Below, one piece after another: positions 1 through 38,841 of a stretch of 38,841 bases of DNA. Positions within the stretch are counted from its first letter, which is position 1, and the number at the start of each line of letters is the position of its first letter. Source of the stretch: a virus; the IMG/VR virus record IMGVR_UViG_3300036913_000020, positions 1-38,841 of that record. One strand, written 5' to 3'. Below the pieces are notes generated by a model. The model was not told the origin of the DNA. It saw only the letters and a program-made list of their open reading frames with translations, and ran no database searches. The position numbers and the translations under genes are program-made.

Positions 1-18
1 TCTCCGTTCTCGCACCAC

Positions 19-144
19 TACCCGCGAACAAGTGCATGGTACGCATTCATGTTACCTACCGATCCTTTACTCGGCCACCTTCGCGCTCGGATGGCACGCA
101 CAGCCAAGCTCCTCCGCCAGCATCGCTACCCATGGCTCAATCCG
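19..144. repeat. Left copy of 126-bp terminal direct repeat
   Basis: Bases 19-144 are identical to 38716-38841, the last 126 bases of the window. The copy holds nearly all of a tiny minus-strand ORF and the start of a methyltransferase-like ORF. The first 18 bases of the window lie outside the repeat and do not match 38698-38715, so this is not a clean circular overlap. Read on the minus strand, the left copy continues as MHLFAGSGARTE and the right copy as MHLFAGIGGGLL, as if two alleles branch here. Confidence 0.95.
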
Positions 145-159: not shown

Positions 160-1002
160 TTACGCACGATGTCGATTCTTAAAACTTAGCTTGCGCGCGA
201 GCGCAGTATTTTCACCAAACGTCTTTTGCCGCTGCCTGCCAATCTCGATAGCGCGCAGTTTCACAGAAAGACTCCGTCCCTTGGCCCCGTAGTTGTAGGC
301 GTCCTCGATGATACGCAAGTAGTCCTTGCTGTTGGTCTGCCGCTGCAATAGAGACGGATTCCTAGAGATGCGATGCTGGAAGATCTCCGCATCGAACTCC
401 GGAATTCGCAGCACCATGGATACGGCTGCCACAAAGGCGGACTGAGTAGCAAAGTCGATTCCGCAGCCCTTGCAGAAATCAACGACCCCAGCTACAGCCT
501 CCGCGTGCTTCAGATTGTCAGACACGCGATAGGTCCCGACCTTCACTTTCTTCATCTGGTTCCCGCTTCCGGCTCCTTCTCCTCCGAGAAGCGAAATTGC
601 GGCCCCCTGGGTGAGCCCATGTCTCTTCTTGAACGCAATAACTTTCTGACAGTTCTCATCGCCCGCCTTTGCTCGCGCAATTAGGAAATCCACGATGGAC
701 CAACTAGAGGACGAATCGCCTTCCAACTCCCAAATGTTCGTGTTGGTGTCATCAATCACATACCACACCGCAAGACCAAGGCGCTTTGCATAGTCTAGCC
801 TGTGATGACCACGAATGACCTTCAGAGTCCCTCGACCGTTCCTGACGCACTGAATCGGAGAGGACGGCATGAAGCCGTGATGCTTCATCGACTCAAGAAG
901 CGCCGGGTGTTCCGACATGTCCCGATTCAGCTCGTGCATTTCGAACATGCCGTAGTCCTTCGTCACCTGCAACTTCGGTTTGTTCATGCTATGCGTGCTC
1001 AT
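160..1002 (-). CDS. ParB-like N-terminal domain protein (280 aa)
   Basis: The N-terminal part carries a ParB/sulfiredoxin-fold signature: a segment predicting a target value (residues about 45-60) followed by IRGHHRLDYAKRLG, which corresponds to the GxxR motif region of ParB-type nuclease or CTPase domains. The rest has no recognised domain and ends very basic (KLSFKNRHRA). Phages often carry stand-alone ParB-fold proteins; roles range from partitioning to nuclease or transcription control, and none can be assigned here. ATG at 1002 has GAGGGAG about 8 bases upstream and overlaps the previous gene's stop by 14 bases; ATG at 987 is a second choice. Confidence 0.8.
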   Translation of the reverse strand: MSTHSMNKPKLQVTKDYGMFEMHELNRDMSEHPALLESMKHHGFMPSSPIQCVRNGRGTLKVIRGHHRLDYAKRLGLAVWYVIDDTNTNIWELEGDSSSSWSIVDFLIARAKAGDENCQKVIAFKKRHGLTQGAAISLLGGEGAGSGNQMKKVKVGTYRVSDNLKHAEAVAGVVDFCKGCGIDFATQSAFVAAVSMVLRIPEFDAEIFQHRISRNPSLLQRQTNSKDYLRIIEDAYNYGAKGRSLSVKLRAIEIGRQRQKTFGENTALARKLSFKNRHRA

Positions 1003-1816
1003 CTAACCACTCCCTCACAAAAGCGAGCGCCTGATTGCGCTCTACGTCATCCGTCCTAATTTGCTCAAGGTCCATGATCGCCATGCGCGCAAATTGCAGA
1101 CCGTTCGCAGGAGGACCGAGCCTCCGCAATGCTTGTGATTCTGGAAGCTCTACGATTTCCGGCTCTTCGATTGGTGGCGCTTCCCTGCGCGCTGGGTACT
1201 GCTTGCCGTCTTGGCCTGTCGTGGTCGCGGTCTTCGAGTTGCCATACACCACAACTAGATTGCGTGGCGTCCCGGTCGGACTGTGGTCCGGAGAAGACAG
1301 TGTGGTGCGATTGATACAGGTGTCGGATTCCGACACCTGCGGTGGGTACTGCTTGCCGTCTTGGCCTGTGGTGCGATTGACACAGGTGTCGGATTCCGAC
1401 ACCTGCGGCCTGTGGGCGATCACCATATCAACCCCCACCCCGCACATCGTGGCCACAGCCCGGCTGCTCAGCTTAGGGAACTCCCTCAACGCTATCTCCA
1501 CGCAACGCCGCTTGTCCGCGTTCGTGCGACGCGCCCCCTGTGTCGCGTTGGCCCCGAGCGCGTGCTTCAACGCGGCCACTCTCCCGCCAGGCTCCAGCTT
1601 GGCAGCAATCGTCTTCGCGTTGATCTTCCTGGCCGCGAAGACCCTGTGCCAACCGTCGCCTATCCAGCACTGCGCCCGCGTTCCGAATACCTCGACGGGA
1701 GGGAACTTGTCGCCGGCCACCATCCCCTTCGCGTAGTCGTCCACAACCGCCATATCTATCGACGCCCTGCACTGAATCGATGCGTCCTGATCTATCACAT
1801 CCAGTTCTATGTTCAT
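989..1816 (-). CDS. Second ParB-like protein with inserted repeats and a tail-gene fragment (275 aa)
   Basis: Residues about 1-95 look ParB-like, with IGDGWHRVFAARK matching the GxxRxxA region, and residues 95-130 look helix-turn-helix-like (KRRCVEIALREFPKLSSRAV, then ATMCGVG). ParB-like plus HTH is a common DNA-binding arrangement. The middle is odd: two copies of a 22-residue unit containing QVSESDTC, separated from an extra GQDGKQYP by 28 residues nearly identical to part of the tail-tube protein at 18196-18630. All insertions preserve frame. A GTG at 1846 would extend the ORF, but ATG at 1816 has GAGGT with an 8-base spacer and is preferred. It forms a pair with the next ParB-like gene. 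Confidence 0.8.
   Translation of the reverse strand: MNIELDVIDQDASIQCRASIDMAVVDDYAKGMVAGDKFPPVEVFGTRAQCWIGDGWHRVFAARKINAKTIAAKLEPGGRVAALKHALGANATQGARRTNADKRRCVEIALREFPKLSSRAVATMCGVGVDMVIAHRPQVSESDTCVNRTTGQDGKQYPPQVSESDTCINRTTLSSPDHSPTGTPRNLVVVYGNSKTATTTGQDGKQYPARREAPPIEEPEIVELPESQALRRLGPPANGLQFARMAIMDLEQIRTDDVERNQALAFVREWLDEHA
1218..1300 (-). repeat. 83-bp copy of a tail-tube gene segment
   Basis: These 83 bases match 18299-18381 with one difference (G at 1285, A at 18366; plus-strand bases). Orientation and reading frame are the same in both genes, giving SSPDHSPTGTPRNLVVVYG here and SSPDYSPTGTPRNLVVVYG in the tail-tube protein. The near-identity implies a recent copy or active conversion. 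Confidence 0.95.
1317..1339. repeat. 23-bp palindrome, copy 1
   Basis: Arms CAGGTGTCGGA and TCCGACACCTG flank one central T. It is a perfect inverted repeat inside the ParB-like coding sequence and encodes QVSESDTC. It could be a binding site, for example parS-like or operator-like, or part of a small palindromic mobile element. The function is inference. Confidence 0.85.
1383..1405. repeat. 23-bp palindrome, copy 2
   Basis: Identical to the palindrome at 1317-1339 and 66 bases away from it, about six helical turns, so both sites would face a similar side of the DNA. No third copy was noticed by eye elsewhere in the window. Confidence 0.85.
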
Positions 1817-1846
1817 CTGTGCATACCTCAAGACAAGGCTGCGCAC

Positions 1847-2442: not shown

Positions 2443-2880
2443 TCAGACAACGTGGTGCTCCGCCAGATACGCGAACGGGTCAGGCTTCTCGTGCGTCTGC
2501 ACAGCCCGTAGGCGAAGATCGTCGTAGGCCTCGTCACCGATCCACTCGCGGCAGGCGCGCTCCCACTCAATCGGATGATGGTGTACCCACCTGTGATGTC
2601 CAGAGCAGAGCCCACGAATGTTCAGCTCGTCGAGCGCGATGGATGGGTAGGCGCCGACGCCAAAGATATGAGCACCTTGAAGCACGCCTCCGCAGTTGAA
2701 GTACATCCCGCCCATGACGCAGTGGCCATCTCGCTCGCGTGCGAGCTTGCGGGCTAGGTTTACAGCTTTGATCCACGCCTTGCGCCGAGCGCGCTGGCTC
2801 TGAGGATTTAGACGTCGGCCGCGAGCGATACGCTTGCGTGGCCTTGGAATGCGCTTGGCTGACTTCGGCTGAGGTGTCAT
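2443..2880 (-). CDS. HNH endonuclease-like protein (145 aa)
   Basis: A basic N-terminus (RIPRPRKRIARGRRLNP) is followed by a helix and a treble-clef HNH core: a CxxG/C-containing strand near residues 62-72, LQGAHIFG with the first histidine, LDELNIRGLCSGHHRWVHH with the Asn and His pair, then a closing helix. These residues form the metal-binding and catalytic centre in HNH nucleases. It may act in phage recombination or packaging-linked DNA cutting; the cluster with a NinB-like protein recalls the lambda nin region, where NinG has a similar role. ATG at 2880 overlaps the previous stop as ATGA; a longer frame to 3078 is a shadow of that gene. Confidence 0.75.
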   Translation of the reverse strand: MTPQPKSAKRIPRPRKRIARGRRLNPQSQRARRKAWIKAVNLARKLARERDGHCVMGGMYFNCGGVLQGAHIFGVGAYPSIALDELNIRGLCSGHHRWVHHHPIEWERACREWIGDEAYDDLRLRAVQTHEKPDPFAYLAEHHVV

Positions 2881-3116
2881 GCCTTGGCCTTCCCGGTTAC
2901 GATCGCTCGCATATCGCGCCCCCTGCCCTTCAGAATCCTGCGGATCGTGGGGTTCGCCATGTCTGGCGGCTTCCACCCGTCTCGGTCTGCGTTGGCGCGC
3001 TCGACCCGGATGCGCGTCTCGGCCAGAATCAGCGCCTGACGCCAGGTGCGGGTGTCGCCATGCTTCCAGCGCGCCCACCGCGTGGTCACTCTGCGAGCAA
3101 GTCGCGTTAGGAACAT
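2877..3116 (-). CDS. Hypothetical basic protein (79 aa)
   Basis: Very rich in Arg, Lys and Trp in the first half (RLARRVTTRWARWKHG). The C-terminus MANPTIRRILKGRGRDMRAI resembles a small regulatory or nucleic-acid-binding helix, but no family is recognised. ATG at 3116 has TGAGG with an 8-base spacer and overlaps the hidden membrane ORF upstream by 10 bases; an in-frame ATG at 3209 has no such site. Its stop overlaps the HNH start as ATGA, implying coupled translation. Confidence 0.55.
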   Translation of the reverse strand: MFLTRLARRVTTRWARWKHGDTRTWRQALILAETRIRVERANADRDGWKPPDMANPTIRRILKGRGRDMRAIVTGKAKA

Positions 3117-3649: not shown

Positions 3650-4083
3650 CCTATAGCCTCCTCTGGGCATTCATTCGGCTCAGGCAGCCGCGCCTGGTAA
3701 TGGTCCCACGCGAAGGCTCGCGCATCCTTATCGAACGCCGAATACTCCTCGGTTGTCATGGTGCGCGTCGGGATCGGCAGCGCGGTACCAAGTGGCCCCT
3801 CGACACTGCCGCGCAGGATCAGCACGAGCGCGTAATGGGTCTCATCTTTCGAGTATGGATCGAGTCCGGCAGCGACTCGCGGAGCAGACCACAGCTCTTG
3901 GAAGAACGGGACGACGACGCCCCAGTGATAGCCGCGTTGCCGATCACTGTGCAGAGTCTTCTCGGACTGCACGCTCACGACAACGCGGCCGGGCTTCATG
4001 GTCGCGAGCTGCGCGCGCCACCGCGTTGGATCATCCAGCGTGAGCCGATGGTCGGCGGAGATTGCTGCTCGCTGGCGGATCAT
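3646..4083 (-). CDS. NinB-like recombination protein (145 aa)
   Basis: Residues about 20-60 have the basic strand-turn pattern seen in NinB-type proteins (KPGRVVVSVQSEKTLHSD, then QRGYHWGVVVPFF). The C-terminus has the family's closing element MTTEEYSAFDKDARAFAWDH followed by LPEPNE. NinB proteins act with phage recombination systems and bind single-stranded DNA. It sits directly after the RecB-like nuclease, with an ATGA overlap at 4083-4080, which supports a recombination role. Assignment rests on pattern memory rather than a search. Confidence 0.6.
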   Translation of the reverse strand: MIRQRAAISADHRLTLDDPTRWRAQLATMKPGRVVVSVQSEKTLHSDRQRGYHWGVVVPFFQELWSAPRVAAGLDPYSKDETHYALVLILRGSVEGPLGTALPIPTRTMTTEEYSAFDKDARAFAWDHYQARLPEPNECPEEAIG

Positions 4084-4910
4084 GACTCCTCCGCCTTCAT
4101 CGTAACGTTGTCGTCGTGCTCTTCGGCGTCGCTCCACTTCCAGAGATGCAGAGCGGCAGAGAACGCTTCGCAGTAGACGTGCATCTTCTCGGGTTCGATG
4201 TAGAGCACTTCGAAGGCTGGGTCAGTCTCGACCTTCGGCAGCCTCACGATGCAGCCCCAGGGCATCGACTTGAGCTGCTCCATTTCGACCAGGCAGTGAC
4301 CGAGGGCTGCAACTTGCAAGCGCGCCTCTTTGTAAATCGCCTTGCCCGTCTTGTTGTCCTGCACGACGATACCGCGCGATCCGTCCGGGAGAGTCAGCTC
4401 GGCTAGTAAATCGAGCGTCCCGGCGTAGCCGTTGTTTCGTGACCACACGCGCTGCTCGACTCCCATCGGAGCCATGTTGACAATCTTGGCCCAGTCCTGC
4501 CAGGCCATCGCAGCCCACAGGGCCGGGTCGCAGACCTTCGGCTCCTCGCCAACCTCCATTTTCAGATCACGACGCAGCCACCACTCGATCAGCGCGTGAG
4601 TTTGGCTGCCGATGTCTCCGGCCTTTGACAGGAGCTTTTGACTTGCTTTCAGCTTCCCGATGCGCGCGACTAGCGAGGCCTGGTAGGCGTCGCGCGCCAT
4701 CTTCGGCGCAGTCGGCACGCTCTCCCATAAGTCGCAGGCCGCAGAGATGCACGCCTCGCGCTCTACCTTCGCTGCCCAGCCGACCAGTGCCGGCTTCCCG
4801 ATTACCCCGAGAATCGTGGTCACCGAAGGATAGAGTGTTCCATCCACATCATAGAAGCGGGCGCTACTACCGAAGCGGTTCGTGCGCTGTACGCGCTTGG
4901 CGGTTTCCAT
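4080..4910 (-). CDS. RecB/Cas4-like PD-(D/E)XK nuclease (276 aa)
   Basis: The order of motifs fits PD-(D/E)XK exonucleases: SVTTILGVIGKPALVGWA near the N-terminus, GDIGSQTHALIE (a His-containing helix) near residue 100, YAGTLDLLAEL supplying the metal-binding Asp near 168, VVQDNKTGK supplying the Asn/Lys of the active site near 190, and a KEARLQVAALG helix after it. The usual D/E before xK is here within QDNK, so the catalytic acid may be shifted. No Cys cluster for Fe-S is seen. It probably resects ends for single-strand annealing with the SSB-like and NinB-like neighbours. Confidence 0.8.
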   Translation of the reverse strand: METAKRVQRTNRFGSSARFYDVDGTLYPSVTTILGVIGKPALVGWAAKVEREACISAACDLWESVPTAPKMARDAYQASLVARIGKLKASQKLLSKAGDIGSQTHALIEWWLRRDLKMEVGEEPKVCDPALWAAMAWQDWAKIVNMAPMGVEQRVWSRNNGYAGTLDLLAELTLPDGSRGIVVQDNKTGKAIYKEARLQVAALGHCLVEMEQLKSMPWGCIVRLPKVETDPAFEVLYIEPEKMHVYCEAFSAALHLWKWSDAEEHDDNVTMKAEES

Positions 4911-5528: not shown

Positions 5529-6074
5529 TCAGTTCCCGACGCCTGCCAGCCTCTCACCGTTCCATGGGCAGCCATCGGGCGTTTTCGCCGCTAGACAGTA
5601 CCGCGCGTGCCACGCGTCCAACTCGGCTCGATGCTCAGCGTAGCCCTTGCTACAGAGCGCGTAGCCATTGCTCCAGAGCGCGTAGCCCTTGCTCCTGAGC
5701 GCGTCGCCCTTGCTCCAGAGCGGGTAGCCCTTTCTACTGAGCGCGTAGCCATTGCTCCAGAGCGCGTAGCCCTTGCTCCAGAGCGGGTAGCCCTTGCTCC
5801 AGAGCGCGTAGCCCTCGCTACTGAGCGCGTAGCCCTCGCTACAGAGCGCGTAGCCATTGCTCCAGAGCGCGTAGCCCTTGCTCCAGAGCGCGAGCGCTTC
5901 GCGGATCGCCTTTGGTAGCTGGCGGTATTGATATGGAGTCACCTGCCACATGCAGCGCAGGCGCATCGCATGCTCTGACTGGGGCTTGTACTGTAGGATC
6001 ATCTTCTTGCGCGCGGAGTACGTGAGCCCCACGGTCAGTAATCCTTGGTGATGTCCATGACCTAGCAGTAGCAT
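5529..6074 (-). CDS. Protein with 12 heptapeptide repeats (181 aa)
   Basis: Residues 1-61 form a normal-looking domain (ARKKMILQYKPQSEHAMRLR). Residues 62-145 are twelve 7-residue units of the form A/P-L-x-S-K/N/E-G-Y/D, dominated by ALWSKGY. A short tail follows with AWHARYC and CPWNGE. ATG at 6074 has AGGAGAGG upstream. Regular Leu/Trp and Tyr spacing suggests a solenoid or coiled repeat surface. Similar short tandem repeats are seen in other phage proteins, but I cannot name a function. Confidence 0.75.
   Translation of the reverse strand: MLLLGHGHHQGLLTVGLTYSARKKMILQYKPQSEHAMRLRCMWQVTPYQYRQLPKAIREALALWSKGYALWSNGYALCSEGYALSSEGYALWSKGYPLWSKGYALWSNGYALSRKGYPLWSKGDALRSKGYALWSNGYALCSKGYAEHRAELDAWHARYCLAAKTPDGCPWNGERLAGVGN
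5640..5891. repeat. 21-bp tandem repeat, 12 units
   Basis: Twelve 21-bp units, plus-strand core GAGCGCGTAGCCCTTGCTCC with scattered substitutions. The unit is a multiple of three, so copy-number change would lengthen or shorten the encoded protein without a frame shift. Differences are at a few positions (CTC/CTA, GCG/GGG, CTT/ATT), shared between non-adjacent units, as expected from slippage plus conversion. Confidence 0.95.
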
Positions 6075-18195: not shown

Positions 18196-18630
18196 CTAGC
18201 TCCAGGTCACCGTTCCGGGATAGGCCGGCGTGAGCGTGGCCTTGTACGTCGAGAGCTTGCCGACCGTTCCGGTCACTTCGTAGTCCTGGACCCAGACAGT
18301 CGTGGTCGCGGTCTTCGAGTTGCCATACACCACAACTAGATTGCGTGGCGTCCCGGTCGGACTGTAGTCCGGAGAAGACAGCACCGCATGCGGCCCGGTG
18401 TTCGCCGTGTCGTCGAAGAATCCGCCGATCGGGATGTCTTTCAGCGAACGCACCCCGGCCGGAAGTTTCCAGGTCCAGCTATCGCCGAACGCCGTCGCCT
18501 CTTCCATTGCCGACGCGATGGCCACCGCGATTGAACCGGTGATGTGGTGCTGGATAGCGCGACCAGTTCCGCCTGGCGCGTCGTCCAGGGTAAAAGTGAC
18601 TTCTGCTGACCCATGCTTGCCCGTTGCCAT
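18196..18630 (-). CDS. Tail tube-like protein, short form (144 aa)
   Basis: It shares an evident pattern with the adjacent 329-residue protein: AMEEATAFGDSWTWKLPAGV and IPIGGFFDDTA here, AMEDTHGLGDSATYKTPVGV and TQQGAFFDDSA there. This pattern suits a tail tube or tail tube-associated fold. The segment 18299-18381 is copied almost exactly into a ParB-like gene. ATG at 18630 follows the partner's stop by nine bases. Confidence 0.65.
   Translation of the reverse strand: MATGKHGSAEVTFTLDDAPGGTGRAIQHHITGSIAVAIASAMEEATAFGDSWTWKLPAGVRSLKDIPIGGFFDDTANTGPHAVLSSPDYSPTGTPRNLVVVYGNSKTATTTVWVQDYEVTGTVGKLSTYKATLTPAYPGTVTWS
18299..18381 (-). repeat. Source-like copy of the 83-bp tail-gene segment
   Basis: Matches 1218-1300 at 82 of 83 positions. 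Because the encoded strands (VLSSPDYSPTGTPRNLVVVY) fit smoothly within the tail protein, while the other copy interrupts a tandem repeat, this is the likely source. Confidence 0.9.
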
Positions 18631-37074: not shown

Positions 37075-38172
37075 TCAAAATAGATTCCCCTGTTCACATC
37101 CTAGGCATGCCGGAGAAAACCAAATCCTCTCGCGCTTCCCGTTTCCTGAGCGCTCCTCGGCTTGTCCGCCGAAACCGTCACCCGCCGACCACACATGCAC
37201 AGACCAGGAATCCGGCATCTCGTGCTCACCTTCGTACCCGCACAGCGCCACGCGCATCTGTGGATTTTCGCCCGCCTCTATTGCCCACGCCCTGACAGAA
37301 TGCGCGATAGCGTCGGAGTCCTCTATATACAGGGCGGACGTCCGCTCTGCGGTGTCAGCGTAAGGCGGGTCGAGAAAAACGCCTGTCGTGCCATGCTTGA
37401 ACGTCACGCTAGGACCGCAGACGCGCGACCAATCGCCCGAGCACACGCGCACCCTAGAGAGACGATTCGCAAGCGCACTGAACCAAGGAACGAGACGTCC
37501 CTGCCCATTGTCCCCGAGGTGCACGAGTTTCCGGTTCACGCCCTGCCCATTGTCCCCGAGGTGCACGCGTTTCCGGTTCACGCCCTGCCCATTGTCCCCG
37601 AGGTGCACGCGTTGCCGGTTCACGCCCCGCCCATTGTCCCCGAGGTGCACGAGTTTCCGGTTCACGCCCTGCCCATTGTCCCCGAGGTGCACGAGTTGCC
37701 GGTTCACGCCCCGCCCATTGTCCCCGAGGTGCACGAGTTGCCCATCCCTCACACTCCAAGGTCCGCGCCCTGAGCAGAAGCCGCTACCAATCCAGCACGA
37801 CACTCCCCATACCCACCACCCGGCAATTTTAGAATCACAGAACTCGGGATCACCTTCTAGTCGCGCCCGCAACGTATCGCGTTGTCCGACAAGCCAGGCG
37901 TGTCGGGCGTGTAGGTCGTTTTCGTTGACCGGATTGTCGGCATGCTCTGCGGTTTCTTCGGGATGGAGCTTGATAGCGCGCCAAAAGTTGGCAACATATC
38001 CATCTAGGTCGTTGATGGTTTCGTTGCCACGACTTTCAGGACGCCCCAACAAGACGGCCCCGGAACCAAAGAAGGGCTCAACGTAATTGTCAACCGCTCC
38101 AAAACGCTTCCATACCTCTGCGGCCACCTTGCGCTTGCCTCCGAACCATGGGAAAGGGCTAGGTAGCGTCAT
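37075..38172 (-). CDS. D12-class adenine-N6 DNA methyltransferase with internal repeats (365 aa)
   Basis: FPWFGGKRKVA (residue 8) is the AdoMet-binding start. VEPFFGSGAVLL (near 32) follows, and LDPPYADT (near 267) is the catalytic motif. Together they identify a Dam-like adenine methyltransferase, which methylates DNA to evade restriction or regulate genes. Between them (about residues 145-224), where target recognition is expected, lie nearly six repeats of a 14-residue unit (QLVHLGDNGRGVNR). It overlaps the preceding gene as ATGA at 38172. Confidence 0.85.
   Translation of the reverse strand: MTLPSPFPWFGGKRKVAAEVWKRFGAVDNYVEPFFGSGAVLLGRPESRGNETINDLDGYVANFWRAIKLHPEETAEHADNPVNENDLHARHAWLVGQRDTLRARLEGDPEFCDSKIAGWWVWGVSCWIGSGFCSGRGPWSVRDGQLVHLGDNGRGVNRQLVHLGDNGQGVNRKLVHLGDNGRGVNRQRVHLGDNGQGVNRKRVHLGDNGQGVNRKLVHLGDNGQGRLVPWFSALANRLSRVRVCSGDWSRVCGPSVTFKHGTTGVFLDPPYADTAERTSALYIEDSDAIAHSVRAWAIEAGENPQMRVALCGYEGEHEMPDSWSVHVWSAGDGFGGQAEERSGNGKRERIWFSPACLGCEQGNLF
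37501..37740. repeat. 42-bp tandem repeat in methyltransferase gene, 5.7 units
   Basis: Units of 42 bases are identical except three sites: A/C, T/G and T/C on the plus strand. The T/G and T/C choices vary together (T with T, G with C), as expected from conversion among units. All substitutions change residues (Leu/Arg, Lys/Gln, Gln/Arg), so the array varies the protein surface. Confidence 0.95.
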
Positions 38173-38573
38173 GGGGCCGCCTTCGCGCACGCCAAACACA
38201 GCGGAGCCTCACCATACATCCCGAAAGTCCACTTCTCGCACCGCGAGCACTTAGCGTGGACGCCAACATGCCGCTCGCCGAGCCCCTCGATCCGCCCTGG
38301 CCAGTTGAGCACGCGAAAGCCGTTCGGTAGGATTTCTATTCGGCGTCCATCGCGGTCCTGCGTACGGCTCTCGTCATCTGGCGACGCGAGAACAGACAGG
38401 CATTCCTGTAGACGTTCCTCTGACAGAAACATCTTCGCCGCGAGTTGCTTTCTGGCGATGAAGACCGCCCCGTTCCTTGGCCCGCCAGGATCCTGGCTCA
38501 TCGCCACAAGAGCCGCGTCGAAACCCGCGAACGTCGTCTGGCGAGACGTCTCGAATGGATCTCTCGTCAACAT
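38169..38573 (-). CDS. Winged-helix plus zinc-ribbon replication-type protein (134 aa)
   Basis: The region FDAALVAMSQDPGGPRNGAV and RRIEILPNGFRVLNW is related to the initiator-like protein at 35999-36838 (LVLLELAQDPRGPQDGTVVI; RRIEELPNGYRILNH). The C-terminus has CSRCEKWTFGMYGEAPLCLAC, also found at 2208-2420. ATG at 38573 has GGAGG directly upstream but with a short spacer. Its first 25 residues lie over a methyltransferase-like frame, so its N-terminus may result from a recombination event. Confidence 0.6.
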   Translation of the reverse strand: MLTRDPFETSRQTTFAGFDAALVAMSQDPGGPRNGAVFIARKQLAAKMFLSEERLQECLSVLASPDDESRTQDRDGRRIEILPNGFRVLNWPGRIEGLGERHVGVHAKCSRCEKWTFGMYGEAPLCLACAKAAP

Positions 38574-38712
38574 GAGCCTCCGGGAAGAGTTGCGCGAGCC
38601 ACGCGCACGGGAACGGTTCTGAGTCGTTGAAGAACGGCGCGGCAATAGGGGTCCCACTCGACGGCGCAGACGGGCTCGTGTCCGAGGAGGAGGTCACAGA
38701 GCAACCCTCCAC
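38374..38712 (-). pseudogene. Second methyltransferase-like frame fragment
   Basis: In this frame the segment FFNDSEPFPCAWLAQLFPEA then HVDERSIRDVSPDDVRGF resembles sequence that often precedes the FAGIGG motif in phage C5 methyltransferases. Beyond about 38520 the frame is a shadow of the winged-helix gene. In this window it follows rather than precedes a FAGIGG motif, and in another frame, so pieces appear to be shuffled. The similarity is from memory. Confidence 0.35.
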
Positions 38713-38734
38713 CTATACCCGCGAACAAGTGCAT
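38567..38734 (-). pseudogene. Start of C5 DNA methyltransferase gene, prematurely ended
   Basis: ATG at 38734 begins MHLFAGIGGGLLCDLLLGHE, then CAVEWDPYCRAVLQ: motif I and motif II of cytosine-5 methyltransferases. After residue about 36 the frame turns to RLRTVPVRVARATL and ends at 38567, far short of the 300 or more residues expected. The Pro-Cys and other catalytic motifs are absent. A frame change or deletion has broken it, unless the true gene continues on the missing side of the end repeat. Confidence 0.6.
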
Positions 38735-38841
38735 GGTACGCATTCATGTTACCTACCGATCCTTTACTCGGCCACCTTCGCGCTCGGATGGCACGCACAG
38801 CCAAGCTCCTCCGCCAGCATCGCTACCCATGGCTCAATCCG
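38716..38841. repeat. Right copy of 126-bp terminal direct repeat
   Basis: Identical to 19-144 and running to the final base. It contains the methyltransferase start codon at 38734 and most of the tiny 26-residue ORF. If the ends are joined, the ParB-like operon runs directly into the methyltransferase fragment. Confidence 0.95.

What the first reader, a model, noticed from the sequence alone, without database searches (positions are those of the whole stretch)
1218..1300. A piece of the tail-tube gene inserted in frame in a ParB-like gene
The sequence shows 82 of 83 identical bases between 1218-1300 and 18299-18381, same orientation and frame. The insert is 84 bases between two halves of a tandem repeat (1220-1303). 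Copying a virion-gene segment into a regulatory-type gene without breaking it is rare. Its near-identity suggests recent transfer, ongoing conversion, or a deliberate function such as homology for recombination or antisense-like cross-talk.
Basis: seen in the sequence. Interest (0 to 1): 0.85.

Follow-up and report, generated by a model that had tools for sequence, protein, structure and literature searches.

The report
Tail-gene scrap beside self-encoded operators
A phage DNA-binding-protein gene carries, in frame, an 84-base copy of a piece of the phage's own tail gene; the copy is probably a chance recombination scar, but it sits beside something more telling: genes of this family carry what looks like the protein's own DNA target inside their coding sequence, and its bases follow the protein's DNA-reading residues.

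Summary
Window 1218-1300 equals 18299-18381 at 82/83 bases, same strand and codon phase. An 84-nt insert (1220-1303, codons 182-209) interrupts one copy of a 66-bp tandem duplication in a ParB/StrR-like ORF (989-1846, minus). The donor is the major tail protein gene: its relatives carry the segment natively, and none of 156 ParB-like relatives inspected has it. Junctions show 2 and 0 nt of homology plus a 3-nt duplication, no inverted ends; the insert lies in a predicted disordered linker. I read it as a tolerated ectopic copy, not a functional device.

The larger find is the linker. The duplicated unit contains a 23-bp palindrome (1317-1339, 1383-1405). In 213 related genes a palindrome follows the helix-turn-helix codons in 69%, against 2% in the gene core and 3% after synonymous shuffling, in all reading frames. 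In 120 genes its bases covary with recognition residues like a code (R to G 80/80; E/D to C 47/47; Q to A 13/14; T to A 30/30). So these genes very likely carry their own operator inside the ORF. In-frame duplications of that linker recur in 8 relatives. Autoregulation is inferred. No second assembly covers the ParB-side junctions.

The parts
989..1846 (-). ParB/StrR-like DNA-binding protein gene (285 codons from GTG; ATG at codon 11 is the likelier start by comparison with relatives)
   Evidence: PHROG 1033 ParB-like 1.2e-8; tblastn to streptomycin-regulator/ParB genes; ParB-family PDB sequences 1.5e-8; Foldseek to ParB, Noc, KorB 8e-7 to 1e-5
1220..1303 (-). 84-nt in-frame insert (codons 182-209): 81 nt copied from the tail gene plus a 3-nt duplication; the near-identical stretch runs 1218-1300
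   Evidence: predicted low-confidence/disordered region
1343..1408 (-). intact copy of the 66-bp tandem unit (PQVSESDTCVNRTTGQDGKQYP)
1193..1342 (-). second copy of the 66-bp unit, interrupted by the insert
1383..1405 (.). intragenic palindrome, putative operator 1: CAGGTGTCGGATTCCGACACCTG, arms 11 + 1 centre base
   Evidence: one of the only two perfect palindromes with arms of 9 or more in the window; family-wide feature with recognition code
1317..1339 (.). intragenic palindrome, putative operator 2, 66 bp away, duplicated with the unit
18299..18381 (-). donor segment in the major tail protein gene
18196..18630 (-). major tail protein gene, 144 aa
   Evidence: PHROG 10528 major tail protein 2.6e-7; tail relatives L007, L008, L010

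Best explanation
Two layers. (1) The insert: while this part of the ParB/StrR-like gene was copied or repaired, the new strand switched to the tail gene about 17 kb away, copied 81 bases and returned 3 bases back, leaving an 84-nt in-frame insert. It survived because it lies in a disordered linker between the helix-turn-helix and the C-terminal helices. It has no role of its own. (2) The site: that linker codes at the same time for the protein's own DNA target, a palindrome right after the recognition helix. A tandem duplication gave this gene two targets 66 bp apart. The protein most likely binds them and restrains its own transcription (inferred), and the embedding keeps the DNA-reading helix and its target together on one short cassette. 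Shown here: the copy, its direction, the duplication, the palindrome in the family and its covariation with recognition residues. Inferred: binding, autoregulation, template switching.
For: Copy and junctions. Direction: tail relatives align through the segment; 156 ParB-like relatives lack it. Disordered linker: pLDDT under 50 at 179-185 and 201-212, between a domain mostly above 90 and C-terminal helices near 80; a relative, L134, has the C-terminal part without the insert. Duplication-prone linker: 30-nt windows repeated at 24 or more matches in 9 of 212 linkers (window included) and 0 of 213 equal-length core regions, periods all multiples of 3. Palindrome: 69% of 213 linkers vs 2.3% core and 3.3% synonymous shuffle; centre frames 50/49/21. 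Covariation: an unbiased scan of residues against 12 half-site positions ranks residue 139/base -5, 129/base -6, 141/base -1, 140/base -4 on top, with R to G 80/80, S/N to T 26/27, E/D to C 47/47, Q to A 13/14, T to A 30/30, F to C 25/26, K/R to G 31/31; Fisher 2.8e-22 for R129 vs G; 24 disjoint tree pairs agree, 0 oppose, 3 do not differ. StrR-like regulators bind 29-bp inverted repeats, GTCCA-N18-TTGGAC (PMC7852140), and 3 of 5 Streptomyces StrR-like genes have imperfect GTTCA...GAAC palindromes at the same place. Phage recombination genes lie nearby: exonuclease 1e-25, NinG/Rap-like 8e-5.
Against: No independent assembly or reads across the ParB-side junctions. The tree behind the paired test is poorly resolved: on well-supported branches only 4-5 pairs remain, nearly all agreeing, which cannot reach significance. 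About 30% of linkers score below the palindrome threshold. Binding and regulation are untested. The same palindrome could act as an RNA hairpin, although that would not explain the residue-base code. The insert's reading frame is kept, which selection for a function would also give.
Confidence: 0.72

Rival explanations
1. Assembly or library chimera: the insert does not exist in the phage.
For: A single contig covers the ParB side; the contig ends are also imperfectly redundant (9-144 vs 38707-38841, 97.8%).
Against: A k-mer misjoin needs shared sequence of k length at each junction; only 2 and 0 nt are shared. The ParB copy has its own base at 1285, different from all three assemblies of the tail copy. 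Frame kept, strand and codon phase shared.
Confidence: 0.1
2. The insert is functional: maintained homology for recombination, antisense, or a peptide copied from the tail protein that gives the regulator a new contact.
Against: Unique in the window; no analogous copy in ParB-like genes of 30 contigs; lies in a predicted disordered, variable linker; 58% of random pieces would stay open.
Confidence: 0.1
3. The palindrome is a mobile palindromic repeat that inserts in frame (like Rickettsia palindromic elements), not an operator.
For: Palindromes appear inside coding sequence in different frames.
Against: Fixed place after the helix-turn-helix; a pattern scan of viral contigs found no other record with this palindrome; usually one site per contig; bases follow recognition residues.
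Confidence: 0.04
4. The intragenic site is a partition (parS-like) or loading site of the ParB-like protein rather than an operator for autoregulation.
For: ParB fold; some phages have extra copies outside the gene (G018: two, G036: one).
Against: No ParA-like hit among the ORFs scanned, though not all ORFs were scanned; no GERR-type CTP motif seen by eye in the N-domain (DGWHR/DGFHR instead).
Confidence: 0.25

Closest known systems
StrR-family antibiotic-pathway regulators (StrR, Bbr, Dbv4, AoStrR1)
   Same: Related N-domain and helix-turn-helix; 29-bp inverted-repeat targets (GTCCA-N18-TTGGAC for AoStrR1, PMC7852140); AoStrR1 binds its own upstream region; imperfect palindromes at the same intragenic place in 3 of 5 Streptomyces StrR-like genes (their pairing scores are not far above background in those GC-rich genes). 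From memory the StrR consensus is GTTCGActG-N11-CagTcGAAC.
   Different: The sites described in the paper read lie in promoter regions of target genes; here the site is inside the regulator's ORF across phages, plasmids and bacteria, usually once per contig. Whether a site inside strR was already described could not be checked.
ParB, Noc and KorB (parS, NBS and OB sites)
   Same: Fold of N-domain plus helix-turn-helix; palindromic targets. From memory a B. subtilis parS lies inside spo0J.
   Different: From general knowledge parS is nearly invariant across bacteria; here the site varies from gene to gene together with the recognition helix.
In-frame partial gene duplication by template switching or illegitimate recombination
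   Same: Short homology at junctions, small direct duplication, source in the same genome, no inverted ends.
   Different: Donor is an unrelated virion gene, and frame and strand are kept.
Rickettsia palindromic elements
   Same: Palindromic DNA tolerated inside coding sequence.
   Different: No dispersed family found; position and bases tied to the encoded protein.

Membership tests
StrR/ParB-like DNA-binding proteins | ParB-type N-terminal domain followed by helix-turn-helix | tested here: met
   PHROG 1033 1.2e-8, PDB ParB 1.5e-8, Foldseek, model confidence above 89 for residues 11-140
StrR/ParB-like DNA-binding proteins | Pfam ParB domain model above cut-off | tested here: not met
   No Pfam family at E 0.1; membership is claimed only as ParB/StrR-like
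StrR-type operator | Inverted repeat of about 29 bp with half sites around a central spacer | tested here: met
   Window 23 bp perfect; family up to 29 bp, CTG-N11-CAG core; literature GTCCA-N18-TTGGAC
StrR-type operator | Bound by the protein | not testable with these tools
   Only covariation
ParABS partition system | ParA ATPase partner | tested here: inconclusive
   No ParA hit among the ORFs scanned; not every ORF was scanned
ParABS partition system | CTP-binding GERR motif | not tested
   Read by eye only: DGWHR at that place
Insertion sequence or transposon | Terminal inverted repeats and dispersed copies | tested here: not met
   Insert ends are not inverted repeats (sequence); two copies only, one native
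Diversity-generating retroelement | Template/variable repeat pair with many adenine-directed changes, and a reverse transcriptase | tested here: not met
   One change in 83; no reverse transcriptase hit among scanned ORFs

The most novel reading that the evidence does not exclude
A whole family of phage and bacterial ParB/StrR-like genes carries the protein's own DNA target inside the reading frame, a codon or so after the recognition helix, so that the reading helix and its target form one short cassette that moves and diverges together; much of the site's sequence can be predicted from four residues, and the number of sites is changed by in-frame duplication, as in this window.
Probability: 0.75. 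Interest if true: 0.8.

Novelty: new variant of a known kind. Interest (0 to 1): 0.62.

Why it matters
The tail-gene copy itself is a clean, recent example of an ectopic in-frame insertion in a phage gene. The setting matters more: if genes of this family carry their own operator, each sequence gives both halves of a protein-DNA pair, so a recognition code can be read directly from metagenomes and tested residue by residue, and the target of uncharacterised phage regulators can be predicted. It also explains why a linker changes in sequence and frame while keeping a palindrome.

Tried and rejected
Exact peptide pattern search for the ParB-like protein in viral contigs found no relative. The palindrome as a dispersed element: no hit in viral contigs. 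The insert segment in other contigs: only the tail gene of two same-population contigs. The 18-mer CTTGCCGTCTTGGCCTGT: five unrelated or chance matches. Copies of other genes in ParB-like linkers of 30 contigs: none. The AlphaFold model of the tail protein was too poor to use (pLDDT 49), so the tail assignment rests on PHROG and on its relatives. Distant DNA search in phage records gave nothing. Ten literature searches found no report of a family-wide intragenic site. No scan of metagenome contigs was allowed.

Full report
WHAT WAS CHECKED. The window is a 38,841-base virus record. Repeat search and self-BLAST confirm one dispersed repeat: 1218-1300 against 18299-18381, 82 of 83 bases, same strand, E 2e-36. 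Both copies lie in minus-strand ORFs and in the same codon phase. The receiving ORF (989-1846) matches ParB-like PHROG 1033 at 1.2e-8; the other (18196-18630) matches a major tail protein PHROG at 2.6e-7.

ANATOMY. The receiving ORF has a 66-bp tandem duplication. The intact unit is 1343-1408; the second, 1193-1342, is 150 nt because 84 nt (1220-1303, codons 182-209) were added. Relative to the empty unit the left junction shares GT with the donor flank, the right junction shares nothing, and TGT is present on both sides. There are no inverted ends. The single difference (1285) puts His188 in the copy where the tail protein has Tyr89.

DIRECTION AND AGE. Tail relatives L007, L008 and L010 align through the segment, and L005 and L006, identical to the window over 8.5 and 7.7 kb, carry the donor unchanged. 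None of 156 ParB-like relatives inspected has the insert. So the copy went from the tail gene to the ParB-like gene, recently.

IS IT AN ARTEFACT? A k-mer misjoin would need long shared sequence at each junction; 2 and 0 nt are shared, and the ParB copy has a base not seen in three assemblies of the tail copy. I consider a chimera unlikely (0.1), but no second assembly covers the ParB side, and metagenome contigs could not be scanned.

IS IT SPECIAL THAT THE FRAME IS KEPT? Less than it seems. 58% of random 84-nt pieces of this genome are open in an arbitrary frame. The model puts residues 179-185 and 201-212 under pLDDT 50, between a confident ParB plus helix-turn-helix region and C-terminal helices. 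A bacterial relative (L134) keeps the C-terminal part without the insert. The linker is where relatives vary: 9 of 212 linkers (the window included) have repeated 30-nt windows against 0 of 213 core regions, all at periods that are multiples of 3: 66 in the window, L145 and L167, 45 in L135, L165 and L174, 33 in L053, 27 in L115, 93 in L347. In most of these the repeated stretch includes the palindrome described next (read from the sequences).

THE PALINDROME. Each 66-bp unit contains CAGGTGTCGGATTCCGACACCTG. These two places are the only perfect palindromes in the window with arms of 9 or more. In relatives the same place, directly after the helix-turn-helix, holds palindromes of different sequence: of 157 genes, score 8 or more in 103 linkers against 3 equal-length core regions. 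In 147 distinct genes it is 67% against 3.4% after synonymous codon shuffling and 2.5% after codon-order shuffling. In an enlarged set of 213 genes it is 69% against 2.3% (core) and 3.3% (synonymous shuffle), with centre frames 50, 49 and 21. So the constraint is on DNA, not on the peptide. The shared core is CTG-N11-CAG with pairing above 80% out to 11 bases from the centre, the innermost base excepted.

THE CODE. If the palindrome is the binding site of the encoded protein, its bases should follow the recognition residues. An unbiased scan over aligned residues and 12 half-site positions puts four such pairs on top: residue 139 with base -5, residue 129 with base -6, residue 141 with base -1 and residue 140 with base -4. 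The tables are close to textbook chemistry: R129 to G 80/80, S/N129 to T 26/27; E/D139 to C 47/47, Q139 to A 13/14, H139 to G 29/34; T141 to A 30/30, F141 to C 25/26; K/R140 to G 31/31. The codons of these residues do not overlap the site. Fisher for R129 against G is 2.8e-22. Relatedness is the main caveat: on the best tree 24 disjoint pairs agree, none oppose and 3 do not differ, but only 4-5 pairs lie on well-supported branches. In this window R129 goes with G at -6 and V139 with T at -5, as in the one other Val case.

WHAT IT WORKS LIKE. The fold is ParB/Noc/KorB-like and the nearest named proteins are streptomycin-type regulators. StrR-like regulators bind 29-bp inverted repeats, GTCCA-N18-TTGGAC for AoStrR1, which also binds its own upstream region (PMC7852140). 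Three of five Streptomyces StrR-like genes have an imperfect GTTCA...GAAC palindrome at the same intragenic place, close to the StrR consensus as I recall it; by pairing score alone these three would not stand out in such GC-rich genes. The site is usually the only one in the contig; G036 has one and G018 two further copies elsewhere. I therefore favour autoregulation through an operator inside the gene; a partition-type role is the main rival.

HOW THE INSERT AROSE. The phage has a predicted recombination exonuclease (4080-4910, 1e-25) and a NinG/Rap-like nuclease (2443-3078, 8e-5) near this gene; no transposase or reverse transcriptase was hit among the ORFs scanned. A bound operator or a hairpin could stall replication and promote both the duplication and a switch to the tail gene. 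This is inference.

VERDICT. The finding is real, its mechanism is probably ordinary ectopic copying into a tolerant linker, and no function of the copy is supported. The setting, an operator embedded in the gene that encodes its reader, is the result worth following. I found no report of it in ten literature searches, but the library is partial, and from memory a parS lies inside B. subtilis spo0J, so I rate it a new variant of a known kind.

Noticed in passing
window 5596-5952: 12 or more tandem copies of a 21-nt unit (heptad-like GYALWSN repeats) inside ORF 5529-6074 (minus); the stretch is open in several frames.
   Followed up: no
window 37457-37784: Six 42-nt in-frame repeats inside a D12-type adenine methyltransferase ORF (37075-38199).
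   Followed up: no
window 9-144 and 38707-38841: Contig ends overlap by 136 nt at 97.8% identity with differing outermost bases; suggests a circular or terminally redundant genome with an imperfect contig end.
   Followed up: no
window 160-1002: A second ParB-like gene of a different PHROG (12305, 1.6e-19) lies directly downstream of the finding's gene.
   Followed up: partly
L145, L167, L174, L135, L053, L165: Relatives whose linker duplications repeat the stretch that holds the palindrome, so operator copy number may change by in-frame duplication in several lineages.
   Followed up: partly
L195 near 17857, L196 near 17717, L232 near 14907: Extra palindromes like the gene's own intragenic site elsewhere in the same phage contigs (G018, G036), possible further targets.
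   Followed up: partly
L115, linker of the ParB-like gene: 27-nt tandem repeats (TTAGGTHC) in the linker of a Verrucomicrobia relative, a different kind of in-frame repeat without the palindrome.
   Followed up: no
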